A program made the translations under genes and the position numbers. DNA of 64,000 bases. It comes from Nectonema munidae (lineage: Eukaryota; Nematomorpha; Nectonematoida; Nectonematidae). Positions within the stretch are counted from its first letter, which is position 1; every line of letters begins with the position of its first letter. Positions 11,472 to 60,209 of the stretch are shown one piece after another. The stretch is from contig JAUIRK010001052.1 in the NCBI GenBank assembly GCA_030549495.1, positions 2,108,001 to 2,172,000 of the forward strand, written 5' to 3'. The notes below the pieces were generated by a model. The model saw only the letters and a list, made by a program, of their open reading frames with translations. It ran no database searches and was not told the origin of the DNA.

Positions 11472-11840
11472 GTGAGTGAGTGCGTGAGTGAGTGAGTGAG
11501 TGAATGAGTGAGTGAGTGAGTGAGTGAGTGAGTGAGTGAGTGAGTGAGTGAGTGAGTGAGTGAGTGAGTGAGTGAGTGAGTGAGTGAGTGAGTGAGTGAG
11601 TGAGTGAGTGAGTGAGTGAGTGAGTGAGTGAGTGAGTGAGTGAGTGAGTGAGTGAGTGAGTGAGTGAGTGAGTGAGTGAGTGAGTGAGTGAGTGAGTGAG
11701 TGAGTGAGTGAGTGAGTGAGTGAGTGAGTGAGTGAGTGAGTGAGTGAGTGAGTGAGTGAGTGAGTGAGTGAGTGAGTGAGTGAGTGAGTGAGTGAGTGAG
11801 TGAGTGAGTGAGTGAGTGAGTGAGTGAGTGAGTGAGTGAG
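11471..11840 (+). repeat. (GAGT)n microsatellite, 3' tail of the LINE
   Basis: About 92 tandem GAGT units (CTCA in the LINE orientation). It is uninterrupted except for two base changes near the end next to the target-site duplication (C at 11483, A at 11504). It abuts the LINE 3' UTR at 11841 without a gap. The imperfect units lie at the far end and the rest is perfect. Long open frames through this array (His-Ser-Leu-Thr on the minus strand) are artefacts of the repeat. Confidence 0.95.
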
Positions 11841-15671: not shown

Positions 15672-15688
15672 ATGAAGTTAGATATGGT

Positions 15689-16740
15689 TTAGTTATGGAT
15701 TGAGTTTATGTGGTTATAATGATTAATGTAGTGAGTGCACTGAGAAGATGTTGTGGAGTGAGGTATGTGAAAGTTGAAGCAAGAACATTTTGAGGTGTAT
15801 AGGGCATGTATACAGGAGCTAATGGAATTGCCGCGGTTGCCGCAATGTGAGCAGTTTGGTAAAGTTGAATTGCATTTTTGTGTGTTATGTCCGTCCGTAT
15901 ATGAGCCAGTTTTCACATTGTTTAGCATTGGTTTTGAATATATGTGTGGTGAGTAGGCAATTGTCTAAGAAGATTTTTGGTTGTGTGGAAAGAAACTTGA
16001 AAATTTGCTTGTTAGATGACTCCATGATAGCGGTGTAATTATAAGTGCCTTGTTTCCCTATTTGAATGGGGTTAATTAGTGAACCTATTGTTTGAATGTT
16101 TGGATTTTGTTTAGAAATAAGGTTAGCGAGATTCAAGACGGGTATGTCGTTTCGAATACTCCGCAAAATGAATTTTGGTTTTTGGGTATCGATGTTTTCC
16201 GCGATCATATCCTTTTTAGTAAGTTGAGTCATAGCTAGATTTTTTTGTGTAGGGTTGTCGAATTGGAAGTAAAGTGTTCCTGAATGAGATGAGCGTGTTT
16301 TAGTAACCGTGAAATTATTGCGTGTGGTTTTCAAATTTTTGATTGAAGTTTGTTTGTGTGTGGCTTTATCTTTTTTTGTAGTGATATTTGAGGATGGTTT
16401 TATTTTTATTGTGAGGTCTGGATTTAAAAAAGATTTTGTGTGCTTGGGTTGAGTAGCATCTGCATGATCGACTTAATGTTGGTGATTGAGAATTATGTTG
16501 TGTGAGATTGGATGAAACAATGCTCGTGTATGTAGAGGTTTGGTTATTGTTTTGTATGTTGGGTTTTTCGAAAGTTTTTAGGTAATGTAATGAAATTTTG
16601 TATTTTAGATCGTTAAATTGCGTAAGGTCTTGTGGAGATAATGTTGTGTTAGCGATGAAATCGTTGAATAGTTGATCGAGAGTGTTGGTGAATGATATAT
16701 GTGGGTTCATTTCTATTCTAGGCCGCTTGGTGAGAGACAT
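15689..16740 (-). pseudogene. LINE ORF1 (gag-like, RRM-like core plus zinc knuckles)
   Basis: Starts at ATG 16740 (MSLTKRPRIE) and runs in three overlapping pieces: 16740-16366, 16334-15885 and 15928-15689. Together they give roughly 340 residues with two frameshifts. The middle piece has an RRM-like pattern (SGTLYFQFDNPTQKNLAM, FILRSIRNDIPVLNLANLI) typical of LINE ORF1 RNA-binding domains. The last piece has a Cys/His series (KCNSTLPNCSHCGNRG, then SKCSCFNF and SSQCTHY), equivalent to the two or three zinc knuckles of I/Jockey-type ORF1 proteins. In an intact element this protein coats the element RNA for delivery to the nucleus. The domain match is from pattern, not from a search. Confidence 0.8.
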
Positions 16741-28400: not shown

Positions 28401-29431
28401 ACATCTTCATTAGTCCAGTTATCCAAAATGATATACTTTCTTAGAAATTGAAACAATCAAACGATTTACATATTCAATTTAGTTCATGAGTTAACATCAT
28501 GCGTTACTTCCTTCTAATGAATATTCTACCATTTTTGGAGATGGAACATTCTTTATGCAAATGTCCATACGCATGAACTATGTTTTTGCAAGTTAAAATG
28601 ATTATTATGTCTAAACCTACAAAGGAGATATTTGAGTAGACTAAAATTTAAATGATGTTCATTTTGTGGCAATATTTTTATGAGATAATCATTTTATTGA
28701 AGTAATTAAATAATGCAGATGACGGATTAATTAATTTTAATAATGAATGTTGTTATTACCTTTGTGATTTTTAATGAAATTATAATTATAATCATCAGCA
28801 TAAAATGTTATAAATTGATAAAGTTTTATCAGTATAAAATGTTCAAAGATCCTTATTTCTCTCGCAACCTAGAAAAAGTATCAAATGCCCAGAGGAGTGA
28901 AAGTATAAAAAAGCAAAAAAGTAGTTGGAGAAAAACATTGCATTGAATAAAATTTTGATTTTATATAAATGCTTTAAAAAAGAAGGCGAAACTTTCATCT
29001 TATAATTTGCAAGGATAAAAAACCCAGCTAAATGTGATAAATAGCTGAAATATAAAGTGAAGACTCATCTTGTGTGTTTGTGCATCAAGAAATGGAACCA
29101 ATGAAAGATATACGCAAATTCCATAGTTTTCTGTCATTTCAAACATTATAAATTGTAAGTGACCTGTTAATGAAATACTATCACTCTTGTTGATAACAAA
29201 TATCTAGGAATTGATAATCTCTACATTCTTATGTTTTAAAATAATTATGTCACGTCCTGACAGATTCTGACTCAGTTTTGCAATGTGATCAACATGGATT
29301 CTTCAAAAAAAAACAGCAATAAATCAATTATTGGACTTTTAATGATATTGTTGGATGCTTGAAAGCAACACGATAGTTGTCGATTTATATTTTGGTTTTA
29401 AGAAGCCATTTGAAAAAGTTTCAAACAAATA

Positions 29432-29470
<39 letters not shown>

Positions 29471-32400
29471 TTTTGCCTTCGAGGCCTGGTTATTGTTCCC
29501 AAAAAGTCGGGGTCAACCAGTTTGCTGCAACAACTACGCCATTTCATTCTTTCTTTAGCATCACTTCGCACAAGCTTTCTTTTTTCCATATCGTGATGAA
29601 TCACTTTATTCCATGCTCTCTTTGGTCTTCCTCTCTTCATCTTTCCATCAATCAATTCATCTTTTATCTTCTTTACAACGTTCCCTTCGGATATCCTTTC
29701 TACATGACCAAACCAACGTAATCTATTCTCTTCTAAATGCACTTCTATATCCTCAATTCCAAAAAGTTTCAAACAAATACCTGTCCAAAAAATTAAAGGA
29801 ATTTAGCATCAACAAAAAAGTCATTTTTTAGGACAACCCTTGAAGTATGAACTCAAATTTGTGCAAATGTCACCATCTTCCAATTTACTCCAAAAATAAA
29901 TTCAACTATTACGCAGATCACAATAATGTAAAACGAAATCAGGTTATTGATCATGAACAAAGGTCATGAATTAGTCATGATCAACCAGTTCATGATGAAA
30001 AGTTCATCATGAACTTTTTCAGTTCATGATGATCATGAACAAAGATCATGAAGCATGTCTAAAAATCTTTAGCTTTTTGTATCCTTTATGTTGTTTATTC
30101 GAAATTACTATTGCTTCATTTTTATATTAAGCATTAATTAGACCACGTTTGGAATATGAAATGTTATCTCACACCAAATCTTGAATAAAGATTTGGAAGC
30201 CCTATAGAAAGGGAGATATAACGAAAAGCAAGATGTTTAGAAAATTTATACTATACTGAAATAGACATCTTGTCTTTACCTTTACTGCGATACCAATTTA
30301 AAAGAAGAAACATGGCCGTTTACATCTTTAAAAGATATGTTTGTAAACCTTGATGTTTTGCCTGCATTTTCTCAACAAAATATATCTATAAAAACAAGAC
30401 ATATAAAACCTTTCCATAAAGCTTATTTCTCTAATAGAATTGTAGAAGAGTGGAACAACATATGCCTGATTATGTTACAATATCTCCATCATTATAAATC
30501 TTTAAAAAACGCCTTGATTGTTTCTGAAATGATAAGAAAAAATTATTAAGAAAGTACATCCATATCATTTGTGGTGATTCAGTAAGTTTTAAACTCAGTG
30601 TTCTATAAACTTTAAACTCATTTCTATTTTTTCTACACAAATTGTCAGGCGTTTCGAACCTTCTTCGAATTTTCGCCTATTTATCTAAAAAATTCCATAA
30701 ATCAAACTTGGTGTGAATGTAAGATTGCTATTGTAAACAAAAAGATTTTTTTACAAGTTGGATTTAATTCCCATTTATGCTTAGATTTTCTTATATTGAT
30801 TGTGCTATAAATTTTTAATTTTCAATTTTTCAGTTCATTCAAATTCGTTGTGTAAATGTATTGTGTTTGTTTTCCAGGATATTTGAGATAATGGAAGTAA
30901 TTTTTTTAGTTTTTATCGTTCTAATTAAAAATGGTTTGCGTACTTATATCCACATGTAAGAATAAAATCCTAAAGCCTGTCAAAATTTTAGATGACCTTA
31001 CAGTTCCTATATAAATTATTTCACCGCCGACACGACAATTAAAACAGTATCTGTAAGAGATATTGTACAGATTTGGAACACCTGTTCTAAATTGAAGACT
31101 ATTTCAAGTTGTATCGTATTTCAACGTGTATAGAGAACCCTGGTGTTTGATAAAGCGCCAAATTTTTAGGTGTTAAAATTTTAAAACGTTTTGTAAGGGA
31201 TTAAACCCCTCAAGAAGAATATAGATTTACTATATTAAATAAATTTTGTTGAAAATACTTTTTCATTAAGCACAGAAAATGCAAATTTATATAACTATAG
31301 AAAAAGCGTAAGATTGTGTCGTGGTTGAATTTCCATATTTGTTTATATTTCATTGCCAATACTATTGATCGGAACCTTCCACATTTTTTGAATATAATTT
31401 TTGACAAATATACGTTAAGTTACAGCGTGTTTTATTATGGAAATATCTTACAGGTACAAGCACATAGCAATAATGGCCACCGTAAAAGCGAGTTGCAATG
31501 ATACAATGATAAAGACCTAAAAGTAAATATGAAATTGAAATTTAGAAAAAACATATTAACATGAAAAAGGCCAATTTTCAATAAAGTAATGCATATGGAA
31601 GTTGTCGAAATTTAAGGTAAAATTAAATTTTGTTCAGTCAATCCACCTTCCTGTTAAAGAAAAAATACAAAACATTAAAACTCAATGTTTCCACTAAGAG
31701 GTAATTGAGACAACTCGTTTAACAATATTTCGAACTAAAAATTAGGGATATTTTCAAACTCAATATGAAGTATTGGAAAAATTCCTAAGTATGAAAATAT
31801 TGAAAGAGTAAAAAAGATAAAAAGCTTATCTTAATATATGCGTAACTTTTTCTAGCCAATCATATCCGAGATCTGTGCGAGGTTTATTTGAATAATAATC
31901 AAAATTTATTCAAGGAATCTTTAAAATATTTGGTTTGATTATAGTGTAATTTGATTGGTTAAAACTATAAAAATTATTCAAATCTTTTTCCAATGAGATC
32001 AAAGATTTTGCGTAGTTCCTCCGTGACAAAAAAAGACACTTCTATTTAAAATATATAATATAGATGAAGAAATTAACTTAGGGTTTCCCAAATTGGTAGA
32101 TGTAGCTTTGCATGAAGCAAAAAGATCATTTGGTTGGCACGAAAGTTGGAGCGTATGAACTTGTTTAACTTGGAGCGGCACACAACTAATTCGTAAAATT
32201 TTCTTTTATAATAATTTATCTACCCTCATTTCCAACCTACTATCGTTGACTTCCGATAATTTTTATGACCTAATTTCTCATTAAAAACGAACACTAAAAT
32301 TTCACTCCTACCTATTGTTTCTAAATTTGATGAATAAATGCTATATATAAAATAAAAAAATGTTAACTATATATGGAAAAATGATTCATATTACTTTTCG

Positions 32401-33867: not shown

Positions 33868-34284
33868 TATTAATTTTTGTTTTAGAAATCTGAAACGTAA
33901 AAGCATCAAAAATATTAGAAATAAAAAACTTGAAAATCTTCAAAAGAAATATAATTTAAACAAATAACTAATATTCAACATATTGAAGGAGCGATTCTAT
34001 TAAACTTTAATCTGTGAAATGAGGTACTGCCTGGCTACCTAAGCTGTCAAGAGAGGACAACACGCAGGATAGAAGAGTTTTGAGCTATAGCTATCATGCT
34101 TTATACTCAAAGCCATAGAGGGCCGCTTCACGTTGCGGATCCAGGAAAATCCTAAATATATATAGGACATCTGCGAATATAGTGAATAAGCAGTCGCGGA
34201 CAATAAAGTACATTTGCATAAAATGAACTGCCTTTAAGGTCATCGCATAAATGTAAGTAGTAAATGTAAGGATGCTCTTCCTGA

Positions 34285-34599
34285 CGCCAACCAAAAAATG
34301 TTGGAGCTGGAAGAACAAAGATCAGAGGAAATTAGTCACTAGAGAGATGAAGATGCTTAGAAAAATTATGGGAGAAACACTGAGGGATCAAATAAGAAAT
34401 GAAGAACTGAGATTGATGTTGTAGGTCAAGCGCTGGACAAGAAAGTGGTTGAAACGAAAAGTAGGGGAGGACAAGGCAAATAATGGAAAGACGATCGGAA
34501 GGAACGACTCAATCTTGGACTGAGTGAAGGTGACGCAAAGAATCGTGAGAAGTGGAGACAAAGGATCGCAGGCACCGACCCCCAACTTGGGAACAAGGT
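34285..34599 (+). mobile_element. LINE ORF2 C-terminal end, source of the GAA tail
   Basis: Plus-strand frames read SWKNKDQRKLVTREMKMLRK and then IMGETLRDQIRNEEL (34290-34420), the post-RT region of LINE ORF2. After decay it reads WKDDRKERLNLGLSEGDAKN, then REKWRQRIAGTDPQLGNK (34482-34596), the common end of such proteins. The (GAA)n array begins at 34600 immediately after, so the array occupies the position of the element's 3' tail. The upstream limit is uncertain and no clear duplication was found. Confidence 0.8.
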
Positions 34600-37500
34600 G
34601 AAGAAGAAGAAGAAGAAGAAGAAGAAGAAGAAGAAGAAGAAGAAGAAGAAGAAGAAGAAGAAGAAGAAGAAGAAGGAAGAAGAAGAAGAAGAAGAAGAAG
34701 AAGAAGAAGAAGAAGAAGAAGAAGAAGAAGAAGAAGAAGAAGAAGAAGAAGAAGAAGAAGAAGAAGAAGAAGAAGAAGAAGAAGAAGAAGAAGAAGAAGA
34801 AGAAGAAGAAGAAGAAGAAGAAGAAGAAGAAGAAGAAGAAGAAGAAGAAGAAGAAGAAGAAGAAGAAGAAGAAGAAGAAGAAGAAGAAGAAGAAGAAGAA
34901 GAAGAAGAAGAAGAAGAAGAAGAAGAAGAAGAAGAAGAAGAAGAAGAAGAAGAAGAAGAAGAAGAAGAAGAAGAAGAAGAAGAAGAAGAAGAAGAAGAAG
35001 AAGAAGAAGAAGAAGAAGAAGAAGAAGAAGAAGAAGAAGAAGAAGAAGAAGAAGAAGAAGAAGAAGAAGAAGAAGAAGAAGAAGAAGAAGAAGAAGAAGA
35101 AGAAGAAGAAGAAGAAGAAGAAGAAGAAGAAGAAGAAGAAGAAGAAGAAGAAGAAGAAGAAGAAGAAGAAGAAGAAGAAGAAGAAGAAGAAGAAGAAGAA
35201 GAAGAAGAAGAAGAAGAAGAAGAAGAAGAAGAAGAAGAAGAAGAAGAAGAAGAAGAAGAAGAAGAAGAAGAAGAAGAAGAAGAAGAAGAAGAAGAAGAAG
35301 AAGAAGAAGAAGAAGAAGAAGAAGAAGAAGAAGAAGAAGAAGAAGAAGAAGAAGAAGAAGAAGAAGAAGAAGAAGAAGAAGAAGAAGAAGAAGAAGAAGA
35401 AGAAGAAGAAGAAGAAGAAGAAGAAGAAGAAGAAGAAGAAGAAGAAGAAGAAGAAGAAGAAGAAGAAGAAGAAGAAGAAGAAGAAGAAGAAGAAGAAGAA
35501 GAAGAAGAAGAAGAAGAAGAAGAAGAAGAAGAAGAAGAAGAAGAAGAAGAAGAAGAAGAAGAAGAAGAAGAAGAAGAAGAAGAAGAAGAAGAAGAAGAAG
35601 AAGAAGAAGAAGAAGAAGAAGAAGAAGAAGAAGAAGAAGAAGAAGAAGAAGAAGAAGAAGAAGAAGAAGAAGAAGAAGAAGAAGAAGAAGAAGAAGAAGA
35701 AGAAGAAGAAGAAGAAGAAGAAGAAGAAGAAGAAGAAGAAGAAGAAGAAGAAGAAGAAGAAGAAGAAGAAGAAGAAGAAGAAGAAGAAGAAGAAGAAGAA
35801 GAAGAAGAAGAAGAAGAAGAAGAAGAAGAAGAAGAAGAAGAAGAAGAAGAAGAAGAAGAAGAAGAAGAAGAAGAAGAAGAAGAAGAAGAAGAAGAAGAAG
35901 AAGAAGAAGAAGAAGAAGAAGAAGAAGAAGAAGAAGAAGAAGAAGAAGAAGAAGAAGAAGAAGAAGAAGAAGAAGAAGAAGAAGAAGAAGAAGAAGAAGA
36001 AGAAGAAGAAGAAGAAGAAGAAGAAGAAGAAGAAGAAGAAGAAGAAGAAGAAGAAGAAGAAGAAGAAGAAGAAGAAGAAGAAGAAGAAGAAGAAGAAGAA
36101 GAAGAAGAAGAAGAAGAAGAAGAAGAAGAAGAAGAAGAAGAAGAAGAAGAAGAAGAAGAAGAAGAAGAAGAAGAAGAAGAAGAAGAAGAAGAAGAAGAAG
36201 AAGAAGAAGAAGAAGAAGAAGAAGAAGAAGAAGAAGAAGAAGAAGAAGAAGAAGAAGAAGAAGAAGAAGAAGAAGAAGAAGAAGAAGAAGAAGAAGAAGA
36301 AGAAGAAGAAGAAGAAGAAGAAGAAGAAGAAGAAGAAGAAGAAGAAGAAGAAGAAGAAGAAGAAGAAGAAGAAGAAGAAGAAGAAGAAGAAGAAGAAGAA
36401 GAAGAAGAAGAAGAAGAAGAAGAAGAAGAAGAAGAAGAAGAAGAAGAAGAAGAAGAAGAAGAAGAAGAAGAAGAAGAAGAAGAAGAAGAAGAAGAAGAAG
36501 AAGAAGAAGAAGAAGAAGAAGAAGAAGAAGAAGAAGAAGAAGAAGAAGAAGAAGAAGAAGAAGAAGAAGAAGAAGAAGAAGAAGAAGAAGAAGAAGAAGA
36601 AGAAGAAGAAGAAGAAGAAGAAGAAGAAGAAGAAGAAGAAGAAGAAGAAGAAGAAGAAGAAGAAGAAGAAGAAGAAGAAGAAGAAGAAGAAGAAGAAGAA
36701 GAAGAAGAAGAAGAAGAAGAAGAAGAAGAAGAAGAAGAAGAAGAAGAAGAAGAAGAAGAAGAAGAAGAAGAAGAAGAAGAAGAAGAAGAAGAAGAAGAAG
36801 AAGAAGAAGAAGAAGAAGAAGAAGAAGAAGAAGAAGAAGAAGAAGAAGAAGAAGAAGAAGAAGAAGAAGAAGAAGAAGAAGAAGAAGAAGAAGAAGAAGA
36901 AGAAGAAGAAGAAGAAGAAGAAGAAGAAGAAGAAGAAGAAGAAGAAGAAGAAGAAGAAGAAGAAGAAGAAGAAGAAGAAGAAGAAGAAGAAGAAGAAGAA
37001 GAAGAAGAAGAAGAAGAAGAAGAAGAAGAAGAAGAAGAAGAAGAAGAAGAAGAAGAAGAAGAAGAAGAAGAAGAAGAAGAAGAAGAAGAAGAAGAAGAAG
37101 AAGAAGAAGAAGAAGAAGAAGAAGAAGAAGAAGAAGAAGAAGAAGAAGAAGAAGAAGAAGAAGAAGAAGAAGAAGAAGAAGAAGAAGAAGAAGAAGAAGA
37201 AGAAGAAGAAGAAGAAGAAGAAGAAGAAGAAGAAGAAGAAGAAGAAGAAGAAGAAGAAGAAGAAGAAGAAGAAGAAGAAGAAGAAGAAGAAGAAGAAGAA
37301 GAAGAAGAAGAAGAAGAAGAAGAAGAAGAAGAAGAAGAAGAAGAAGAAGAAGAAGAAGAAGAAGAAGAAGAAGAAGAAGAAGAAGAAGAAGAAGAAGAAG
37401 AAGAAGAAGAAGAAGAAGAAGAAGAAGAAGAAGAAGAAGAAGAAGAAGAAGAAGAAGAAGAAGAAGAAGAAGAAGAAGAAGAAGAAGAAGAAGAAGAAGA

Positions 37501-40500
37501 AGAAGAAGAAGAAGAAGAAGAAGAAGAAGAAGAAGAAGAAGAAGAAGAAGAAGAAGAAGAAGAAGAAGAAGAAGAAGAAGAAGAAGAAGAAGAAGAAGAA
37601 GAAGAAGAAGAAGAAGAAGAAGAAGAAGAAGAAGAAGAAGAAGAAGAAGAAGAAGAAGAAGAAGAAGAAGAAGAAGAAGAAGAAGAAGAAGAAGAAGAAG
37701 AAGAAGAAGAAGAAGAAGAAGAAGAAGAAGAAGAAGAAGAAGAAGAAGAAGAAGAAGAAGAAGAAGAAGAAGAAGAAGAAGAAGAAGAAGAAGAAGAAGA
37801 AGAAGAAGAAGAAGAAGAAGAAGAAGAAGAAGAAGAAGAAGAAGAAGAAGAAGAAGAAGAAGAAGAAGAAGAAGAAGAAGAAGAAGAAGAAGAAGAAGAA
37901 GAAGAAGAAGAAGAAGAAGAAGAAGAAGAAGAAGAAGAAGAAGAAGAAGAAGAAGAAGAAGAAGAAGAAGAAGAAGAAGAAGAAGAAGAAGAAGAAGAAG
38001 AAGAAGAAGAAGAAGAAGAAGAAGAAGAAGAAGAAGAAGAAGAAGAAGAAGAAGAAGAAGAAGAAGAAGAAGAAGAAGAAGAAGAAGAAGAAGAAGAAGA
38101 AGAAGAAGAAGAAGAAGAAGAAGAAGAAGAAGAAGAAGAAGAAGAAGAAGAAGAAGAAGAAGAAGAAGAAGAAGAAGAAGAAGAAGAAGAAGAAGAAGAA
38201 GAAGAAGAAGAAGAAGAAGAAGAAGAAGAAGAAGAAGAAGAAGAAGAAGAAGAAGAAGAAGAAGAAGAAGAAGAAGAAGAAGAAGAAGAAGAAGAAGAAG
38301 AAGAAGAAGAAGAAGAAGAAGAAGAAGAAGAAGAAGAAGAAGAAGAAGAAGAAGAAGAAGAAGAAGAAGAAGAAGAAGAAGAAGAAGAAGAAGAAGAAGA
38401 AGAAGAAGAAGAAGAAGAAGAAGAAGAAGAAGAAGAAGAAGAAGAAGAAGAAGAAGAAGAAGAAGAAGAAGAAGAAGAAGAAGAAGAAGAAGAAGAAGAA
38501 GAAGAAGAAGAAGAAGAAGAAGAAGAAGAAGAAGAAGAAGAAGAAGAAGAAGAAGAAGAAGAAGAAGAAGAAGAAGAAGAAGAAGAAGAAGAAGAAGAAG
38601 AAGAAGAAGAAGAAGAAGAAGAAGAAGAAGAAGAAGAAGAAGAAGAAGAAGAAGAAGAAGAAGAAGAAGAAGAAGAAGAAGAAGAAGAAGAAGAAGAAGA
38701 AGAAGAAGAAGAAGAAGAAGAAGAAGAAGAAGAAGAAGAAGAAGAAGAAGAAGAAGAAGAAGAAGAAGAAGAAGAAGAAGAAGAAGAAGAAGAAGAAGAA
38801 GAAGAAGAAGAAGAAGAAGAAGAAGAAGAAGAAGAAGAAGAAGAAGAAGAAGAAGAAGAAGAAGAAGAAGAAGAAGAAGAAGAAGAAGAAGAAGAAGAAG
38901 AAGAAGAAGAAGAAGAAGAAGAAGAAGAAGAAGAAGAAGAAGAAGAAGAAGAAGAAGAAGAAGAAGAAGAAGAAGAAGAAGAAGAAGAAGAAGAAGAAGA
39001 AGAAGAAGAAGAAGAAGAAGAAGAAGAAGAAGAAGAAGAAGAAGAAGAAGAAGAAGAAGAAGAAGAAGAAGAAGAAGAAGAAGAAGAAGAAGAAGAAGAA
39101 GAAGAAGAAGAAGAAGAAGAAGAAGAAGAAGAAGAAGAAGAAGAAGAAGAAGAAGAAGAAGAAGAAGAAGAAGAAGAAGAAGAAGAAGAAGAAGAAGAAG
39201 AAGAAGAAGAAGAAGAAGAAGAAGAAGAAGAAGAAGAAGAAGAAGAAGAAGAAGAAGAAGAAGAAGAAGAAGAAGAAGAAGAAGAAGAAGAAGAAGAAGA
39301 AGAAGAAGAAGAAGAAGAAGAAGAAGAAGAAGAAGAAGAAGAAGAAGAAGAAGAAGAAGAAGAAGAAGAAGAAGAAGAAGAAGAAGAAGAAGAAGAAGAA
39401 GAAGAAGAAGAAGAATGAAGAAGAAGAAGAAGAAGAAGAAGAAGAAGAAGAAGAAGAAGAAGAAGAAGAAGAAGAAGAAGAAGAAGAAGAAGAAGAAGAA
39501 GAAGAAGAAGAAGAAGAAGAAGAAGAAGAAGAAGAAGAAGAAGAAGAAGAAGAAGAAGAAGAAGAAGAAGAAGAAGAAGAAGAAGAAGAAGAAGAAGAAG
39601 AAGAAGAAGAAGAAGAAGAAGAAGAAGAAGAAGAAGAAGAAGAAGAAGAAGAAGAAGAAGAAGAAGAAGAAGAAGAAGAAGAAGAAGAAGAAGAAGAAGA
39701 AGAAGAAGAAGAAGAAGAAGAAGAAGAAGAAGAAGAAGAAGAAGAAGAAGAAGAAGAAGAAGAAGAAGAAGAAGAAGAAGAAGAAGAAGAAGAAGAAGAA
39801 GAAGAAGAAGAAGAAGAAGAAGAAGAAGAAGAAGAAGAAGAAGAAGAAGAAGAAGAAGAAGAAGAAGAAGAAGAAGAAGAAGAAGAAGAAGAAGAAGAAG
39901 AAGAAGAAGAAGAAGAAGAAGAAGAAGAAGAAGAAGAAGAAGAAGAAGAAGAAGAAGAAGAAGAAGAAGAAGAAGAAGAAGAAGAAGAAGAAGAAGAAGA
40001 AGAAGAAGAAGAAGAAGAAGAAGAAGAAGAAGAAGAAGAAGAAGAAGAAGAAGAAGAAGAAGAAGAAGAAGAAGAAGAAGAAGAAGAAGAAGAAGAAGAA
40101 GAAGAAGAAGAAGAAGAAGAAGAAGAAGAAGAAGAAGAAGAAGAAGAAGAAGAAGAAGAAGAAGAAGAAGAAGAAGAAGAAGAAGAAGAAGAAGAAGAAG
40201 AAGAAGAAGAAGAAGAAGAAGAAGAAGAAGAAGAAGAAGAAGAAGAAGAAGAAGAAGAAGAAGAAGAAGAAGAAGAAGAAGAAGAAGAAGAAGAAGAAGA
40301 AGAAGAAGAAGAAGAAGAAGAAGAAGAAGAAGAAGAAGAAGAAGAAGAAGAAGAAGAAGAAGAAGAAGAAGAAGAAGAAGAAGAAGAAGAAGAAGAAGAA
40401 GAAGAAGAAGAAGAAGAAGAAGAAGAAGAAGAAGAAGAAGAAGAAGAAGAAGAAGAAGAAGAAGAAGAAGAAGAAGAAGAAGAAGAAGAAGAAGAAGAAG

Positions 40501-43500
40501 AAGAAGAAGAAGAAGAAGAAGAAGAAGAAGAAGAAGAAGAAGAAGAAGAAGAAGAAGAAGAAGAAGAAGAAGAAGAAGAAGAAGAAGAAGAAGAAGAAGA
40601 AGAAGAAGAAGAAGAAGAAGAAGAAGAAGAAGAAGAAGAAGAAGAAGAAGAAGAAAAAGAAGAAGAAGAAGAAGAAGAAGAAGAAGAAGAAGAAGAAGAA
40701 GAAGAAGAAGAAGAAGAAGAAGAAGAAGAAGAAGAAGAAGAAGAAGAAGAAGAAGAAGAAGAAGAAGAAGAAGAAGAAGAAGAAGAAGAAGAAGAAGAAG
40801 AAGAAGAAGAAGAAGAAGAAGAAGAAGAAGAAGAAGAAGAAGAAGAAGAAGAAGAAGAAGAAGAAGAAGAAGAAGAAGAAGAAGAAGAAGAAGAAGAAGA
40901 AGAAGAAGAAGAAGAAGAAGAAGAAGAAGAAGAAGAAGAAGAAGAAGAAGAAGAAGAAGAAGAAGAAGAAGAAGAAGAAGAAGAAGAAGAAGAAGAAGAA
41001 GAAGAAGAAGAAGAAGAAGAAGAAGAAGAAGAAGAAGAAGAAGAAGAAGAAGAAGAAGAAGAAGAAGAAGAAGAAGAAGAAGAAGAAGAAGAAGAAGAAG
41101 AAGAAGAAGAAGAAGAAGAAGAAGAAGAAGAAGAAGAAGAAGAAGAAGAAGAAGAAGAAGAAGAAGAAGAAGAAGAAGAAGAAGAAGAAGAAGAAGAAGA
41201 AGAAGAAGAAGAAGAAGAAGAAGAAGAAGAAGAAGAAGAAGAAGAAGAAGAAGAAGAAGAAGAAGAAGAAGAAGAAGAAGAAGAAGAAGAAGAAGAAGAA
41301 GAAGAAGAAGAAGAAGAAGAAGAAGAAGAAGAAGAAGAAGAAGAAGAAGAAGAAGAAGAAGAAGAAGAAGAAGAAGAAGAAGAAGAAGAAGAAGAAGAAG
41401 AAGAAGAAGAAGAAGAAGAAGAAGAAGAAGAAGAAGAAGAAGAAGAAGAAGAAGAAGAAGAAGAAGAAGAAGAAGAAGAAGAAGAAGAAGAAGAAGAAGA
41501 AGAAGAAGAAGAAGAAGAAGAAGAAGAAGAAGAAGAAGAAGAAGAAGAAGAAGAAGAAGAAGAAGAAGAAGAAGAAGAAGAAGAAGAAGAAGAAGAAGAA
41601 GAAGAAGAAGAAGAAGAAGAAGAAGAAGAAGAAGAAGAAGAAGAAGAAGAAGAAGAAGAAGAAGAAGAAGAAGAAGAAGAAGAAGAAGAAGAAGAAGAAG
41701 AAGAAGAAGAAGAAGAAGAAGAAGAAGAAGAAGAAGAAGAAGAAGAAGAAGAAGAAGAAGAAGAAGAAGAAGAAGAAGAAGAAGAAGAAGAAGAAGAAGA
41801 AGAAGAAGAAGAAGAAGAAGAAGAAGAAGAAGAAGAAGAAGAAGAAGAAGAAGAAGAAGAAGAAGAAGAAGAAGAAGAAGAAGAAGAAGAAGAAGAAGAA
41901 GAAGAAGAAGAAGAAGAAGAAGAAGAAGAAGAAGAAGAAGAAGAAGAAGAAGAAGAAGAAGAAGAAGAAGAAGAAGAAGAAGAAGAAGAAGAAGAAGAAG
42001 AAGAAGAAGAAGAAGAAGAAGAAGAAGAAGAAGAAGAAGAAGAAGAAGAAGAAGAAGAAGAAGAAGAAGAAGAAGAAGAAGAAGAAGAAGAAGAAGAAGA
42101 AGAAGAAGAAGAAGAAGAAGAAGAAGAAGAAGAAGAAGAAGAAGAAGAAGAAGAAGAAGAAGAAGAAGAAGAAGAAGAAGAAGAAGAAGAAGAAGAAGAA
42201 GAAGAAGAAGAAGAAGAAGAAGAAGAAGAAGAAGAAGAAGAAGAAGAAGAAGAAGAAGAAGAAGAAGAAGAAGAAGAAGAAGAAGAAGAAGAAGAAGAAG
42301 AAGAAGAAGAAGAAGAAGAAGAAGAAGAAGAAGAAGAAGAAGAAGAAGAAGAAGAAGAAGAAGAAGAAGAAGAAGAAGAAGAAGAAGAAGAAGAAGAAGA
42401 AGAAGAAGAAGAAGAAGAAGAAGAAGAAGAAGAAGAAGAAGAAGAAGAAGAAGAAGAAGAAGAAGAAGAAGAAGAAGAAGAAGAAGAAGAAGAAGAAGAA
42501 GAAGAAGAAGAAGAAGAAGAAGAAGAAGAAGAAGAAGAAGAAGAAGAAGAAGAAGAAGAAGAAGAAGAAGAAGAAGAAGAAGAAGAAGAAGAAGAAGAAG
42601 AAGAAGAAGAAGAAGAAGAAGAAGAAGAAGAAGAAGAAGAAGAAGAAGAAGAAGAAGAAGAAGAAGAAGAAGAAGAAGAAGAAGAAGAAGAAGAAGAAGA
42701 AGAAGAAGAAGAAGAAGAAGAAGAAGAAGAAGAAGAAGAAGAAGAAGAAGAAGAAGAAGAAGAAGAAGAAGAAGAAGAAGAAGAAGAAGAAGAAGAAGAA
42801 GAAGAAGAAGAAGAAGAAGAAGAAGAAGAAGAAGAAGAAGAAGAAGAAGAAGAAGAAGAAGAAGAAGAAGAAGAAGAAGAAGAAGAAGAAGAAGAAGAAG
42901 AAGAAGAAGAAGAAGAAGAAGAAGAAGAAGAAGAAGAAGAAGAAGAAGAAGAAGAAGAAGAAGAAGAAGAAGAAGAAGAAGAAGAAGAAGAAGAAGAAGA
43001 AGAAGAAGAAGAAGAAGAAGAAGAAGAAGAAGAAGAAGAAGAAGAAGAAGAAGAAGAAGAAGAAGAAGAAGAAGAAGAAGAAGAAGAAGAAGAAGAAGAA
43101 GAAGAAGAAGAAGAAGAAGAAGAAGAAGAAGAAGAAGAAGAAGAAGAAGAAGAAGAAGAAGAAGAAGAAGAAGAAGAAGAAGAAGAAGAAGAAGAAGAAG
43201 AAGAAGAAGAAGAAGAAGAAGAAGAAGAAGAAGAAGAAGAAGAAGAAGAAGAAGAAGAAGAAGAAGAAGAAGAAGAAGAAGAAGAAGAAGAAGAAGAAGA
43301 AGAAGAAGAAGAAGAAGAAGAAGAAGAAGAAGAAGAAGAAGAAGAAGAAGAAGAAGAAGAAGAAGAAGAAGAAGAAGAAGAAGAAGAAGAAGAAGAAGAA
43401 GAAGAAGAAGAAGAAGAAGAAGAAGAAGAAGAAGAAGAAGAAGAAGAAGAAGAAGAAGAAGAAGAAGAAGAAGAAGAAGAAGAAGAAGAAGAAGAAGAAG

Positions 43501-44939
43501 AAGAAGAAGAAGAAGAAGAAGAAGAAGAAGAAGAAGAAGAAGAAGAAGAAGAAGAAGAAGAAGAAGAAGAAGAAGAAGAAGAAGAAGAAGAAGAAGAAGA
43601 AGAAGAAGAAGAAGAAGAAGAAGAAGAAGAAGAAGAAGAAGAAGAAGAAGAAGAAGAAGAAGAAGAAGAAGAAGAAGAAGAAGAAGAAGAAGAAGAAGAA
43701 GAAGAAGAAGAAGAAGAAGAAGAAGAAGAAGAAGAAGAAGAAGAAGAAGAAGAAGAAGAAGAAGAAGAAGAAGAAGAAGAAGAAGAAGAAGAAGAAGAAG
43801 AAGAAGAAGAAGAAGAAGAAGAAGAAGAAGAAGAAGAAGAAGAAGAAGAAGAAGAAGAAGAAGAAGAAGAAGAAGAAGAAGAAGAAGAAGAAGAAGAAGA
43901 AGAAGAAGAAGAAGAAGAAGAAGAAGAAGAAGAAGAAGAAGAAGAAGAAGAAGAAGAAGAAGAAGAAGAAGAAGAAGAAGAAGAAGAAGAAGAAGAAGAA
44001 GAAGAAGAAGAAGAAGAAGAAGAAGAAGAAGAAGAAGAAGAAGAAGAAGAAGAAGAAGAAGAAGAAGAAGAAGAAGAAGAAGAAGAAGAAGAAGAAGAAG
44101 AAGAAGAAGAAGAAGAAGAAGAAGAAGAAGAAGAAGAAGAAGAAGAAGAAGAAGAAGAAGAAGAAGAAGAAGAAGAAGAAGAAGAAGAAGAAGAAGAAGA
44201 AGAAGAAGAAGAAGAAGAAGAAGAAGAAGAAGAAGAAGAAGAAGAAGAAGAAGAAGAAGAAGAAGAAGAAGAAGAAGAAGAAGAAGAAGAAGAAGAAGAA
44301 GAAGAAGAAGAAGAAGAAGAAGAAGAAGAAGAAGAAGAAGAAGAAGAAGAAGAAGAAGAAGAAGAAGAAGAAGAAGAAGAAGAAGAAGAAGAAGAAGAAG
44401 AAGAAGAAGAAGAAGAAGAAGAAGAAGAAGAAGAAGAAGAAGAAGAAGAAGAAGAAGAAGAAGAAGAAGAAGAAGAAGAAGAAGAAGAAGAAGAAGAAGA
44501 AGAAGAAGAAGAAGAAGAAGAAGAAGAAGAAGAAGAAGAAGAAGAAGAAGAAGAAGAAGAAGAAGAAGAAGAAGAAGAAGAAGAAGAAGAAGAAGAAGAA
44601 GAAGAAGAAGAAGAAGAAGAAGAAGAAGAAGAAGAAGAAGAAGAAGAAGAAGAAGAAGAAGAAGAAGAAGAAGAAGAAGAAGAAGAAGAAGAAGAAGAAG
44701 AAGAAGAAGAAGAAGAAGAAGAAGAAGAAGAAGAAGAAGAAGAAGAAGAAGAAGAAGAAGAAGAAGAAGAAGAAGAAGAAGAAGAAGAAGAAGAAGAAGA
44801 AGAAGAAGAAGAAGAAGAAGAAGAAGAAGAAGAAGAAGAAGAAGAAGAAGAAGAAGAAGAAGAAGAAGAAGAAGAAGAAGAAGAAGAAGAAGAAGAAGAA
44901 GAAGAAGAAGAAGAAGAAGAAGAAGAAGAAGAAGAAGAA
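34600..44939 (+). repeat. Giant (GAA)n microsatellite, about 10.34 kb
   Basis: About 3,447 tandem GAA units (TTC on the minus strand), pure purine on the plus strand. I see only three interruptions: an extra G near 34676, a T at 39416 (GAATGAAG) and a G-to-A change at 40656. The five very long open frames here (poly-Ser, Leu, Phe, Glu, Arg, Lys) are repeat artefacts and not genes. Long GAA/TTC tracts are known to form triplex and sticky DNA and to silence nearby transcription (for example FXN intron 1 in people). This one starts 733 bp upstream of the lifeguard start codon, with TTC in that gene's sense strand. Confidence 0.98.
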
Positions 44940-47215
44940 TTTGACAAAATGTGCAGTCATGTCTGAAGAAATTAGCGACTGAGAAAAGACACACAAATTA
45001 GACTATATTGAGACATCTTACTAATTAGCATGTTTTTAGTTCGGAGTTGTGGATGATATAGAGACACAACATACGACTTCTAAAATGTTTCCATTAATGA
45101 TGTTACCGATCTATCCCCAATATCCATCGGAACTACTACGTGACAAATGTTGAAGTGTTAGAGCGAGCGGTAGTAACGTTGAACACTCTATGACTTCGTT
45201 ATACTACATTTAAAATTTATTATATAAGAGTTATAAAAGTCTAATTGTAGCTTTCAAAAATCCAAACACCAGATTAAGATGGTGAATTATTACAAAAAAT
45301 TTCATGAATCAAGAAAGTCAAGAAAATTTGTCTCAAAGAATTAATGCACAAATTTATAGATTCCACATAACAAGAATTACGTCCAAAGTGCAAATATTAC
45401 ATTAATTGAAGTTTAGGGTAATCTTAAAGATTTAATGATAGAAACAACAAAATCATCAGCGCCATTCAATCTCTTTTACTTTCGTTCTTGTCATTTTTAA
45501 GTTCTAAAAATAATTGGCTGCCTCATAAAATACTATTTTTTTCTGAAATTGTTATTATTTTTAATGAAAGAAACAGAATAAAATCAAAATTTTAGGATTC
45601 ACTGTATTTCCAAATGCCAAATAATGATTTTGGCAATATAGTAACACCTATTAATTTAGTAATTACAAGAAATCTGCATAAATTTTTTTGAATTCATAAA
45701 CCCTTAATTGCAACACTCATTTTTCCTATTTGATGAGATTTGTGAGCCTAGAATTTTCCCGCATCTGAGGAAATTAGTAGCTAGTCTTACTGTAACATAT
45801 ACACAATTGGTGAATTTATGCTAATCTAGTAAATGTTAAAAATATATTACACCAAATTTATATAAGTACTGATTTAGATATGAAGATTTTGTGATTAAAA
45901 TAAAACATTTAATTAATAATAATAGAAATGAATGGACATTACTGACTTACCAAGATAATACTTCTGGAAATTGTTTTATAAATCTGAATAAAAATTTTAA
46001 CAATCTTGCACCTAATTTAAACTCCTTTGCTGAAAAGGTTATATCAAATGCTATATATGTAATATTTAATAAGACGAAACAAATAAATTAGAAAAGGTAT
46101 TATGGTGTAATTTTGTCATGTTTCTTTAAAAAAACACGCGAAAATCGGTTTTGTTACAGCTACGCCTTCAGGCAATTCTGTGACCTTCAGGTTGTTATAG
46201 GAATTATACACATAGGTTTTATCTATCTATAGCATGTTGCATAAGAGATAGTAAGTAATGTCAATGTATAGAGTAGTATGATAATAAATTAATTGTACAC
46301 ATGAAACATGATGGAAAACTCATATTAAATGTATTATTATACTAATATAGTTAGTTTGCAGTAGTCCAATGCTTGGAGCATTAGTTCCAATCAATCACCG
46401 GCCACGATTAGTGTTGGAGATTTAGCAATTATTTTAACATAGAGATTTTGGGTCTAGATAAGCAAAAATAAGTTAGATCAAAGGCTTAGTAAGGTTTTCT
46501 TTCTGCAAATGGCAAATTGTCTCCAAAATGAAGTATCTTGATTTATTTTACCTTTTATGCGACTATGACTAATTATATTTGTTCAATTTATTACAAATTT
46601 CATTAAATCGTTTGCTTTTGGTGTTAAAAATCCTACGAGAAGGTAAACTCGCTCTCAAACAATAATTTTAGGGGTAATCGATGAAAGCGATAGGAGAAAA
46701 ACACTGTTCTAAGGCTTCCTCCCGGCACCACCCATCATTTGAAAAATAGTTCCAGAGCAATGCTCGACAATAACATGGTTAGAGTTAGGGCTATGGTTAG
46801 GCTCATAGGTTAAAATTTTATACAAAATATTAAAAATATATATAAAAAAATTATATAAAATTTTACAATTTCCAATTAACCGTGGGACAGCAAGTTGTTG
46901 ATATATTTGAGACACGAACAGGTCAATTTTACCTTTGAATAATGATAATTTTTTAATATAAATTTCCCAGTAATCAAAGAAATTTGTTTTGAAATTTATA
47001 CTAACACAAAGAAATCGTAATATTTTCTTTATAAAACGTTTTAAATTTAAAAAAAAGCATCAAAACTTGGTGAAGTTTAAGAATTTTCTCATATCATGGA
47101 ATGATCACAATTTATGATGAAAAATTCTTTTTTTTAAGCACAGTTTTAGGTTTATAGAGCACAAAATTTATTCTCAATTTTTGAGCTAAATAGTTTCCTT
47201 TTTGATAGTCATTGC
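44940..47215. other. AT-rich stretch right of the GAA array
   Basis: No supported gene. An open run at 45891-46091 (+) has no recognisable motif. 46710-46810 holds a low-copy-looking GC-richer segment with GTTAGAGTTAGGGCTATGGTTAGG, telomere-like in wording only. Confidence 0.5.
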
Positions 47216-52313: not shown

Positions 52314-52567
52314 CCCCTGTTTTTTATGGTTGAGTTTTTGGTTGGGGATATGTACACACATTTCAAAAAATAAGCTCATATGAAATGAAATTATAAAAAC
52401 AATGTAGCAATTAAACAATTTAGTAACTTTGAAATTGAATCCCCTGTTTTTTATAGTTGAGTTTTTGTTTGGGGAAATGTACACACATTTCAAAAAATAA
52501 GCTCATATGAAATGAAATTATAAAAACAATGTAGCAATTAAACAATGTAGTAACTTTGAAATTGAAT
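52314..52567 (+). repeat. 127-bp tandem duplication
   Basis: Two adjacent copies, 52314-52440 and 52441-52567, differ at only a few positions (for example TTATGG versus TTATAG near the start). The low divergence suggests a recent duplication. Non-coding. Confidence 0.9.
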
Positions 52568-52657
52568 CTTTATGATAAAGGGTAAATGTAGTGTGGTATT
52601 TTCATTGAATAAAGTACTAATTTGCAGCTAACATCGAGCTATGGATAATCTAGCAGA

Positions 52658-57002: not shown

Positions 57003-59976
57003 TTTAAATCCTGTCTGTGTTTAAGTGCTCCTTGTTTGTGCGTGACTGTGTTTAAGTGCTCCATGTTTGTGGTTTCTGTGCTTGAGTGCCCCCTAATGGT
57101 GTTTGCTTGTGATAAAGTGCTCCCTGTTTGTTCCTGGCTGTGTTTGAGAGCTCTCTGTGTGCTTGTTTGTGTTTAAGTGCTCATTGTTTGTGTCGACCTG
57201 TGTTTAAGTGTTCCATTTTGTGTTTGCCTTTGCCTATGTGTGCCTGCTTGTGTTTGAGTGCTCACTGTATGTGCTTTCATGCGTTTGAGTGTTCGTTCAC
57301 TGTTAGTGCTTCTCTGTGTTTGATTTCTCCCTGTTTGTGCCTGATTTTGTTTGAGTGCTCCCTGTTTGTGCCTTCCTATTGTTTAAGTCCTACCTGTGTT
57401 TAAGTGCTCCTTATTTGTGTCTGACTGTGTGTGCCGGCCTGTGTTTAAGTCCTCCTTGTTTGTGTCTGACTGTGTGTCCCGGCTTGTGTTTAAGTGCTCC
57501 CTCCTTGTGCTTGCCTGTGTTTGAGTGCTACCTGTTTGTGCCTGCCTGTGTTTGAGTGCTCCTTTATTGTGCCTGAATGTGGTTGAATGCCCCGTGTTTG
57601 TGCCTGCCTGTTGTTTTAGTGCTCCCCGTTTGTGCCTGCCTGTTGTTTGAGTGCTCGATGATGGTGTCTGCCTGTGTTTAAGTGCTCCCTGTTTGTGCCT
57701 GTCTATTGTTTAAATCCTGCCTGTGTTTAAGTGCTCCTTGTTTGTGCGTGACTGTGTTTAAGTGCTCCATGTTTGTGGTTCTGTGCTTGAGTGCCCCCTG
57801 TTGGTGCTTGTTGTGATAAAGTGCTACCTGTTTGTGCCTGGCTGTGTTTGATAGCTTTCTGTGTGCTTGCTTGTGTTTATGTGCTCATTGTTTGTGTCGA
57901 CCTGTGTTTAAGTGTTCCATTTTGTGTTTGCCTTTTCATGTTTGTGCCTGCTTGTGTTTGAGTGCTCCCTGTATGTGCTTCCCTGTGTTTGAGTGTTCGT
58001 TCACTGTTTGTGTTTCTCTGTGTTTGATTTCTCCCTTTTTGTGCCTGATTTTGTTTGAGTGCTCTCTGTTTGCGCCTTCCTATTGTTTAAGTCCTACCTG
58101 TGTTTAAGTGCTCCTTCTTTGTGTTTGACTGTGTGTGCCGGCCTGTGTTTAAGTCCTCATTGTTTGTGTCTGACTGTGTGTCCCGGCCTGTGTTTAAGTG
58201 CTCCCTGTTTGTGCTTGCCTGTGTTTGAGTGCTCCCGCTTTGTGCCTGCCAGTGTTTGAGTGCTCCTTTTTTGTGTCTGAATGTGGTTGAGTGCCCCGTA
58301 TTTGTGCCTGCCTGTGTTTGAATGTTCCCAGTTGATTCCTGCCTGTGTTTGAGTTTTGGTTCACTGTTTGTGCTTGAGTGCTCCCTGCTTGTTCTTGCCT
58401 GCATTTGACTGCTACCTATTTGTCCCTGCATGTGTTTGTGTGCTCTCTATTTGTATCTGCCTGTGTTTGAGTGTTACCTGTTTATGCCCGTCTATGCTTA
58501 CCTGCTCCATTTTGCCCTTCCTGTTGTTTGAGTGCTCAATGTTTGTGCATGCCTGTTGTTTAAGTGCTCAATGTTTGTGCTTGCCAGTTGTTTAAGTGCT
58601 CCCTGTTTGTGCCTGTTTCTTGTTTGAGTTCTCCCTGTTTGTGCCTGCCTATGTTTGAGCGCCCTCTGTCGGTGGCTTCCTGTGTTTAAATTCTCCCTGT
58701 TTGTGCCTGACTATTGTTTAAGTCCTACCTGTGTTTAAGTGCTCCTTGTTTGTCCCTGACTATGTTTGGGTGTTGCCTGTTTGTACCAGGCTGTTGTTTG
58801 AGTGCTCGTTGTATGTTCCTTTCTGTGTTTGAGTGCTCCCTTTTTGTTCCTACCTATGTTTGAGTGCTCTCTGTTTGTACCTGCCTGTGTTTGAGTGCTA
58901 CGTGTTTGTTCTTACCTATGTTTGAGTGCTCTCTGTTTGTACGTGCCTATGTTTAAGTGCCCACTTTTGGTGTCTGCCTGTTGTTTAAGTGCTCCCTGTC
59001 TGTGCCTGCCTGTCTTTGAGGGCCTGCTGTTAGTGTCTTCCTGTGTTTTAGTGTTCCTTGTGTGTGCCTTCCAATTGATTAAGTCATACCTGTGTTTAAG
59101 TGCTCCTTGTTTGTCCCTGACTGTGTTAGAGTGCTCCCTGTTTGTCTCAGCCTGTGTTTGAGTGCTCCTTCTTTGTGCCTGAATGTGGTTGAGTGGCCCG
59201 TTTTTGTGCCTGCCTGAGTTTGAGTGTTCCCTGTTGGTGCCTGCTTGTGTTTGAGTGTTGGTTCACTGTTTGTCCTTGAATGTGTTTGAGTGCTCCATTC
59301 TTGTTCTTGCCTGTGTTTGAGTGCTCCCTGTTTGTCCCGACCTATGTTTAAGTGCCTCTTGTTTGTGCCGTTGTGTGTTTAATGCTACCTGTTTGTTCTT
59401 GCCTGTGTTTTATTGCTCCTTCTTTGTGCCTGAATGTTATTGAGTGCTCCCTGTTAGTACCTGTATGTGTTTGAGTGTTGGTACACTGTTTGTGTTGCCT
59501 GTGTTTGAGTGCTCCCTGTTATTCCTACCTGTATTTGACTGTTCTCTGTTTATACCTGCCTATGTTTAAGCGCTCCTTGTTGTTTAACTGCTACCTGTTG
59601 ATTGAGTGATCGTTGTTTGTTCTTAACAGTGTTTAAGTGCTCTGTTTGTAACTGCCTCTGTTTAAGCGTTATCTGTTTTTGCCTGCCTGTATTTAAGTGC
59701 TCCCTGTTTGTGCCTGCCTGTTGTTTGAGTGCTCCAGTTTGTGCCTGCCTGTGTTTAAGTGCTCCCTGTTTGTGCCTGTCTATTGTTTAAATCCTGTCTA
59801 TTGTTTAAGCGTAACTGTGTTTAAGTGCTTCATGTTTGTGCTTTCCTGTGCTTGAGTTCCCCCTGTTGGTGCTTGCTTGTGATAAGAGATCCCTGTTTTT
59901 GCCTGCCTGTATTTAAGTGCTCCCTATTTGTGCCTGCCTGTTGTTTGAGTGCTCCAGTTTGTGCCTGCCTGTTGTT
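57003..59976 (+). repeat. Minisatellite arm 1, about 31-bp unit, 704-bp higher-order repeat
   Basis: Degenerate tandem units close to GTGTTTGAGTGCTCCCTGTT + TGTGCCTGCCT (31 bp), with a TTGTTTAAGTGC variant. A higher-order period of 704 bp is clear: distinctive variants at 57003-57400 recur at about 57707-58107 in the same order. These include the TGATAAAGTGC unit, the CTGTGTGCTTG unit and the GTTCGTTCACTGTT unit. A third, worn copy starts near 59786. Short Cys/Leu-rich open frames here (CLSAPCLCL type) are by-products of the unit, broken by stops. Confidence 0.95.
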
Positions 59977-60209
59977 TGACCTTTATGATTGATGGGAATA
60001 TTTCTGTTACTGAAAATCCTGACGTGATACGGCAAAACGGTTATGATTTTTGAAATCAGCGTACCCAAATTAGTCTAAATCACTTTACACATCTCCAGTA
60101 AAATTTTTTTGCTTGTTCAGTGTTATTAGGGGAACCAATGATCTTTAAAGTGGTAACAATTTACGGTAGGTACCCATCATATTTTCCGTATAATAAATCT
60201 TTGAAAAAA
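59977..60209. other. Unique spacer at the minisatellite inversion centre
   Basis: About 233 bp of non-repetitive AT-rich DNA between the two inverted arms. No ORF or known element recognised. Confidence 0.8.

What the first reader, a model, noticed from the sequence alone, without database searches (positions are those of the whole stretch)
34600..44939. A nearly perfect 10.34-kb GAA/TTC array
Seen directly: about 3,447 GAA units with three interruptions. This is several times longer than the long pathogenic human FXN alleles known from the literature (up to roughly 1,700 units). Pure purine/pyrimidine tracts of this kind form triplexes and block polymerases, so persistence at this length implies a tolerant genome, a special replication or repair state, or a heterochromatic role.
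Basis: partly seen in the sequence, partly recalled or inferred. Interest (0 to 1): 0.88.

Follow-up and report, generated by a model that had tools for sequence, protein, structure and literature searches.

The report
Giant GAA repeat grown from retrotransposon tail
A 10-kilobase run of the triplet GAA sits exactly at the 3' end of an old retrotransposon fragment, and the same animal genome holds dozens more long triplet runs, so this looks like an extreme case of a known process rather than a new kind of element.

Summary
The array is real in the assembly: 34600-44939 holds 3,445 GAA triplets with three small interruptions. It is not isolated. Exact (GAA)16 matches 31,569 times genome-wide. 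Searching 5 of 9 boundary classes gave 32 loci with pure runs of 40 or more units, 22 of them at least 1 kb. The window's array is the longest mapped.

The array begins where a 5'-truncated, RTE-like LINE fragment ends (34297-34599). Twenty-two of 26 sister loci show a GTAGTCAAA-like terminus there, followed by at most 1-4 unbroken GAA units. The LINE is 71-87% identical to its sisters; the array is about 99.97% pure, so it probably grew long after the insertion. Two more long arrays (L081, L062) and a 22-unit one (L040) follow LINE 3' ends; most edges examined show no recognised LINE.

Triplex formation is not the general cause: (ATG)16, no purine tract, matches 107,347 times, (AAT)16 only 1,564. 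LINE-tail microsatellite seeding is known (PMC2887409, PMC6050309); size and abundance are unusual. The assembled length is provisional: 7 of 32 arrays lie near contig ends.

The parts
34297..34599 (+). 5'-truncated 3' end of a non-LTR (RTE-like) retrotransposon; the C-terminal reading frame ends ...SEGDAKNREKWRQRIAGTDPQLGNKV at the array edge
   Evidence: 58 matches in the genome, itself included (254 first-look candidates, 40 scored); 19 of the 57 others run to the last base before the array; C-terminal peptide matches sister copies; RVT_1 in 2 of 4 sister-copy frames tested
34600..34674 (+). (GAA)25, LINE-proximal part of the array
34675..34675 (+). interruption 1: single extra G
34676..39415 (+). 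(GAA)1580
39416..39416 (+). interruption 2: single extra T
39417..40655 (+). (GAA)413
40656..40658 (+). interruption 3: AAA in place of GAA
40659..44939 (+). (GAA)1427
44940..45900 (.). right flank, single-copy at the sensitivity of the search
   Evidence: one match only, itself
29432..29760 (-). comparison element 5 kb away: second RTE-like LINE 3' fragment with an (ATG)12 tail (29432-29468)
   Evidence: frame; tandem repeat; target-site duplication
29413..29431 (-). target-site duplication copy 1 (19 bp) of the comparison element
   Evidence: perfect 19-bp repeat; alignment score reached by 0.06% of 5,000 random pairs
29761..29779 (-). target-site duplication copy 2 (19 bp)

Best explanation
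The array is the overgrown 3' microsatellite tail of an old, 5'-truncated RTE-like LINE insertion. SHOWN: it starts at the LINE's 3' end; the family's own tail is a short GAA run; the LINE flank is diverged and the array almost pure; many other long GAA arrays exist in the genome, and 3 of the 30 whose upstream flank was held (this one included) follow a LINE 3' end. INFERRED: target-primed reverse transcription left a tail of a few GAA units. Long after insertion that tail grew by repeated expansion during replication or break repair (slippage, template switching, break-induced copying), in a genome that lets several triplet repeats, ATG above all, reach great length. The change from GGTGTAGTCAAAGAAG in the family to GGTGAAGAAG at this junction is read as a small deletion or overwrite during expansion. 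No function is needed; the array is probably neutral to mildly harmful.
For: Array start coincides with the family's 3' terminus: 22 of 26 distinct sister loci (from the 30 fetched of 58 matches) show a GTAGTCAAA-like terminus, and the longest unbroken GAA run in the next 60 bp is 1-4 units (by eye). Nineteen of 57 other matches, 72-87% identical, run to the last base before the array. L081 (408 units) starts 3 bp after a related LINE C-terminus (hmmsearch 3.3e-5; 31 bp at 90% DNA identity). L062 (249 units) starts about 29 bp after decayed LINE C-terminal pieces (best 1.5e-4 against the frame at window 29464-29802). L040 carries TAGTCAAA and a 22-unit run and matches sister copy L022 at 71% over 216 bp. 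In all four the LINE is in sense orientation with GAA after it. A neighbouring LINE fragment in the window shows the process cleanly: an (ATG)12 tail inside a perfect 19-bp target-site duplication. RTE LINEs with very short SSR 3' UTRs are published as microsatellite progenitors, (GAA)n among the motifs (PMC2887409, abstract and section 8).
Against: No significant target-site duplication flanks this array: the best shared word is AAAATGT, a score reached by 16.8% of random pairs. The TAGTCAAA motif is missing at this junction. Only 3 of 30 upstream edges examined show a LINE 3' end, and L062's is weak and 29 bp off; L059 adjoins a minisatellite, L078 a 61-bp shared stretch, L041 and L066 another repeat downstream, and the other edges nothing recognised. 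One weak LINE-like hit (L047 downstream flank, 0.002) is on the opposite strand and away from the array. The one (ATG)n array read (L113, 233 units) had no LINE visible by eye in its upstream 600 bp. Only one genome place carries TAGTCAAA plus 8 or more units, so native tails of this family rarely grow.
Confidence: 0.72

Rival explanations
1. Assembly or consensus artefact: the true allele is much shorter, longer or less pure, and 10.34 kb is what the assembler and polisher made of it. (The rivals are not mutually exclusive.)
For: 7 of 32 mapped arrays lie within about 1.4 kb of a contig end (about 0.3 expected, binomial 2.5e-8; the 1.4-kb bound was chosen after seeing the data). Contig C513 ends inside a GAA array and C590 within three bases of one. 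HiFi dropout in GA-rich sequence is described in PMC9241371 (passages); the sequencing platform used here is not known.
Against: The array lies inside a 3.2-Mb contig with single-copy sequence to its right; GAA arrays in the genome span a graded range of lengths rather than one odd case; three unique interruptions could anchor reads.
Confidence: 0.2
2. GAA-specific expansion driven by triplex or R-loop formation, as argued for Friedreich ataxia repeats.
For: (GAA)16 is 20 times more frequent than (AAT)16 although the window is only 31% GC. GAA tracts can stall replication (PMC9296464, passages).
Against: (ATG)16, not a homopurine tract, is 3.4 times more frequent still (107,347 hits). The purine repeat (GAAA)12 gives only 56. 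PMC9296464 reports only mild stalling by GAA repeats in its own system.
Confidence: 0.2
3. The LINE inserted next to, or into, a GAA array that already existed, its GAA tail priming on TTC; the array did not grow from the tail.
For: A GAA-tailed RNA could prime on TTC targets (inference); no target-site duplication was found.
Against: Insertion into an array should leave GAA on both sides of the LINE. No GAA or TTC run of four or more units lies in the window outside 34600-44939.
Confidence: 0.15
4. A functional heterochromatic satellite, kept by selection.
For: GAA satellites accumulate on both sides of barley centromeres and serve to identify chromosomes (PMC11447152, passages).
Against: The 32 mapped arrays lie on 31 different contigs, and few of the flanks compared share any sequence. 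Chromatin could not be tested.
Confidence: 0.05

Closest known systems
RTE-clade LINE-derived microsatellites of Lepidoptera (PMC2887409; abstract and section 8 read)
   Same: Array directly at the 3' end of a LINE C-terminal fragment; native 3' UTR made of short SSR units, (GAA)n among the reported motifs
   Different: Published arrays run from 2 to more than 35 units; here 3,445
LINE microsatellite seeding in snakes by CR1-L3 (PMC6050309; passages read)
   Same: LINE 3' tail as seed of a microsatellite motif, genome-wide effect
   Different: AATAG pentamer there with significant adjacency to CR1-L3; here triplets in kilobase arrays, and LINE adjacency recognised at only 3 of 30 upstream edges
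Expanded FXN GAA repeat in Friedreich ataxia (disease alleles and Alu origin recalled; replication context from PMC9296464 passages)
   Same: Same motif, large expansion, retroelement origin
GAA satellite of barley (PMC11447152; passages read)
   Same: GAA/TTC tandem arrays
   Different: The barley unit mixes perfect and degenerate GAA and accumulates at loci on both sides of the centromeres; here the array is nearly pure and others are dispersed over many contigs

Membership tests
RTE-clade non-LTR retrotransposon (left flank) | reverse transcriptase domain | tested here: met
   RVT_1 in 2 of 4 sister-copy frames tested (L011 7.3e-11, L031 4.2e-14), and homology between copies runs through that region; the window's own fragment is truncated before it
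RTE-clade non-LTR retrotransposon (left flank) | very short 3' UTR ending in simple repeat units | tested here: met
   frame ...DKV-TAG then TCAAA and short GAA runs; terminus seen in 22 of 26 sister loci, longest run 1-4 units
RTE-clade non-LTR retrotransposon (left flank) | single ORF with APE-type endonuclease | not tested
RTE-clade non-LTR retrotransposon (left flank) | RT phylogeny places it in the RTE clade | not tested
   the name 'RTE-like' rests on tail structure and recalled C-terminal resemblance
RTE-clade non-LTR retrotransposon (left flank) | 5' truncation with target-site duplication | tested here: inconclusive
   homology starts at about 34297; no significant TSD (p 0.168). The nearby (ATG)-tailed fragment has a perfect 19-bp TSD
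LINE-seeded microsatellite | array begins at the LINE 3' terminus in fixed orientation | tested here: met
LINE-seeded microsatellite | same adjacency at many loci genome-wide | tested here: inconclusive
   3 of 30 upstream edges of arrays of 40 or more units, plus L040 with 22 units; only two LINE C-termini were used as probes and no shuffled-position control was run
Triplex-driven GAA expansion (FXN-like) | expansion restricted to triplex-forming motifs | tested here: not met
   (ATG)16 107,347 hits against (GAA)16 31,569 and (GAAA)12 56
Functional heterochromatic satellite | H3K9me3, small RNAs, chromosome banding | not testable with these tools
   no chromatin or cytological data

The most novel reading that the evidence does not exclude
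This animal's genome has an unusual replication or repair state in which triplet repeats of at least two unrelated motifs (ATG and GAA) run away to great length at many sites, the largest seen here being 10.3 kb, with retrotransposon tails as one source of seeds. It would be a natural model of large-scale triplet expansion without disease.
Probability: 0.3. Interest if true: 0.68.

Novelty: new member of a known kind. Interest (0 to 1): 0.42.

Why it matters
Large-scale triplet expansion is studied mostly at a few human disease loci and in yeast reporters (recalled). A compact animal genome with at least 32 GAA arrays, from 41 units up to the 3,445 seen here and some traceable to LINE tails of 1-4 units, gives starting points that can be dated (the LINE flank) and end points (the array). 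It also offers a comparison between a triplex-forming motif (GAA) and a motif that is not (ATG) in the same cells. It warns, too, that GAA-rich arrays may break assemblies.

Tried and rejected
Rejected: a protein-coding reading. The 1,600-3,500-aa frames over the array exist because GAA, AAG, AGA and their complements are not stop codons. Rejected: a significant target-site duplication around the array. Rejected as the general cause: GAA-only triplex expansion, because of (ATG)n. Not resolved: species. A full-text search for contig number and genome size listed nothing useful; an L016 frame is closest to LAR-type receptor phosphatases (about 5e-74), from which I take the genome to be an animal's. 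Rfam and tRNA scans of the window were empty.

In one search a permissive fuzzy pattern for the LINE terminus gave false matches (25 of 26); I dropped it for the stricter. The pattern itself counts L023 through a chance word (its real TTTAATCAAAG lies a few bases on) and misses L038, which has GTGTAGTAAAG by eye. Left out of the copy counts: L009 (the window itself) and L034, L035, L036 (second pieces of L031, L026 and L011). In the flank comparisons nine loci were left out as repeats of arrays already held (L048, L057, L061, L065, L067, L068, L071, L072, L073); of these L068 alone held the downstream edge of C744, which was therefore not compared. Held were upstream edges of 30 of 32 arrays and downstream edges of 17 of 32, plus both of L040.

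In the rows they listed I saw no paper on kilobase GAA arrays grown from LINE tails, but the listings are capped and the library holds open-licence papers only; I make no claim that none exists.

Full report
OBSERVATION. The sequence 34600-44939 is (GAA)25-G-(GAA)1580-T-(GAA)413-AAA-(GAA)1427: 3,445 GAA triplets in 10,340 bp with three small interruptions. No GAA or TTC run of four or more units lies elsewhere in the window. Tandem Repeats Finder reports one period-3 array at the same coordinates. The long frames through it are a by-product of a motif without stop codons.

GENOME CONTEXT. The window is C740:2108001-2172000 of a 211.6-Mb genome in 748 contigs. Window GC outside the array is 31%. 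A frame beside one LINE copy is closest to LAR-type receptor tyrosine phosphatases (about 5e-74), from which I take the genome to be an animal's; the species is not known. Exact (GAA)16 matches 17,659 times forward and 13,910 reverse, of which this array explains 3,385.

OTHER GAA ARRAYS. I searched starts of pure runs of 40 or more units by the letters before them: T 10, C 1, G 6, AAA 16, TAA 8, together 41 run starts at 32 loci, the window included. The classes CAA, TA, CA and GA were not searched. Chaining pure runs over gaps of up to 30 bp, 22 of 32 arrays are at least 1 kb. The longest others are bracketed by short probes: C627 5.25-7.15 kb, C239 4.6-5.5 kb, C159 about 4.5-6 kb, C589 4.1-5.0 kb (interruptions between probes are possible). 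C748 runs for about 4.75 kb, its far part heavily interrupted, and C744 for 2.65 kb. Nine others were no longer GAA at probes 3.0-3.4 kb from their start. The window's array is the longest mapped. By a rough tally 5,700-11,600 of the 31,569 hits are still unlocated (C748 is a guess in it and C590 slightly underestimated), so a longer array in the unsearched classes is not excluded.

THE LEFT FLANK IS A LINE 3' END. The 700 bp before the array have 58 matches in the genome, itself included (254 first-look candidates, 40 scored). All but two (itself and one at 34101-34211) lie within 34296-34599, and 19 of the 57 others end at the last base before the array. In 22 of 26 distinct sister loci this point is followed by a GTAGTCAAA-like terminus, and the longest unbroken GAA run in the next 60 bp is 1-4 units. 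The frame ends ...DKV-TAG, so the native 3' UTR is little more than TCAAA(GAA)n. In the window the junction reads GGTGAAGAAG instead of GGTGTAGTCAAAGAAG. Reverse transcriptase (RVT_1) was found in 2 of 4 sister-copy frames tested. I call the family RTE-like because of the tail; no RT tree was built.

AGE CONTRAST. The LINE flank is 71-87% identical to its sisters over the matched stretches, while the array carries three interruptions in 10.3 kb. Each interruption is unique, so no later duplication copied it (sequence, inference). Most of the array is therefore probably much younger than the insertion.

DOES LINE SEEDING GENERALISE? In part. Of 30 upstream edges held, three follow a LINE 3' end: the window, L081 (408 units, 3 bp after a related C-terminus; 3.3e-5; 90% over 31 bp) and L062 (249 units, about 29 bp after decayed C-terminal pieces; best 1.5e-4). 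L040 carries this family's TAGTCAAA with a 22-unit run. L041 and L066 share a 238-bp repeat directly downstream (90%), L059 adjoins the 31-bp minisatellite that also lies in the window, and L078 a 61-bp stretch shared with L055. The other edges show nothing recognised at the array; a LINE-like hit in the L047 downstream flank (0.002) is on the other strand and not at the edge. No shuffled-position control was possible. Five kilobases to the left of the array a second LINE fragment shows the process in clean form: a C-terminal fragment, an (ATG)12 tail, and a perfect 19-bp target-site duplication. The GAA array itself has no significant target-site duplication.

IS GAA SPECIAL? Not uniquely. 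By the same 48-base exact count, (ATG)16 gives 107,347 hits (reversed control 121), (GAA)16 31,569, (AAT)16 1,564 and (GAAA)12 56. The first 100 (AAT) places lie at about a dozen loci, those of (GAA) and of (ATG) at one each; as far as these capped lists go, AAT arrays are short and GAA and ATG arrays long. The one ATG array read has 233 pure units and no LINE seen by eye. A triplex property cannot explain ATG. A general tolerance for triplet arrays, with LINE tails as one seed, fits better.

ASSEMBLY CAUTION. Seven of 32 arrays lie within about 1.4 kb of a contig end (binomial 2.5e-8 against about 0.3 expected; the bound was chosen after the fact). Contig C513 ends inside an array and C590 within three bases of one. 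HiFi dropout in GA-rich sequence is reported (PMC9241371, passages), but the platform used here is not known. The 10.34-kb length should be treated as provisional until spanning reads are seen.

COMPARISON. RTE LINEs of Lepidoptera with SSR 3' UTRs as microsatellite progenitors (PMC2887409, abstract and section 8) are the closest precedent, with arrays from 2 to more than 35 units. Snake CR1-L3 seeding (PMC6050309, passages) is the genome-wide precedent. Barley GAA satellites (PMC11447152, passages) differ in being partly degenerate and placed around centromeres. Human DM2 alleles reach 11,000 CCTG units (PMC3378579, abstract in listing).

VERDICT. A real, extreme member of a known kind: most likely a LINE-tail microsatellite grown to 10 kb in a genome rich in long triplet arrays. 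The genome-wide pattern is more interesting than the single locus.

Noticed in passing
genome-wide; L113: (ATG)n arrays are 3.4 times more abundant than (GAA)n by exact 48-mers; the one array read has 233 pure units and no LINE seen by eye in the 600 bp upstream.
   Followed up: partly
window 29413-29779: RTE-like LINE fragment on the minus strand with an (ATG)12 tail inside a perfect 19-bp target-site duplication.
   Followed up: yes
window 57015-64000: Large inverted pair of a 31-bp minisatellite (forward 57015-59979, inverted from 60350 to the window end); the same minisatellite directly adjoins a GAA array on another contig (L059).
   Followed up: no
window 11470-11840: (GAGT)93, a long tetranucleotide array at 98% match.
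   Followed up: no
window 12241-16740: Decayed LINE on the minus strand; RVT_1 at 13740-14207 and Exo_endo_phos_2 at 14530-15561.
   Followed up: no
window 52314-52568: A 127-bp unit in two tandem copies, 96% match.
   Followed up: no
L041 and L066, directly downstream of their GAA arrays: A shared 238-bp dispersed repeat (90% identity) borders both arrays, a possible second seed family.
   Followed up: no
L055 about 200 bp downstream of its array; L078 directly upstream of its array: A shared 61-bp stretch; in L055 it leads into sequence that reads like the start of a tRNA-derived SINE on the other strand (motif recalled).
   Followed up: no
contigs C590, C513, C522, C558, C159, C239, C249: GAA arrays within about 1.4 kb of contig ends, C513 ending inside one; arrays seem to break the assembly.
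   Followed up: yes
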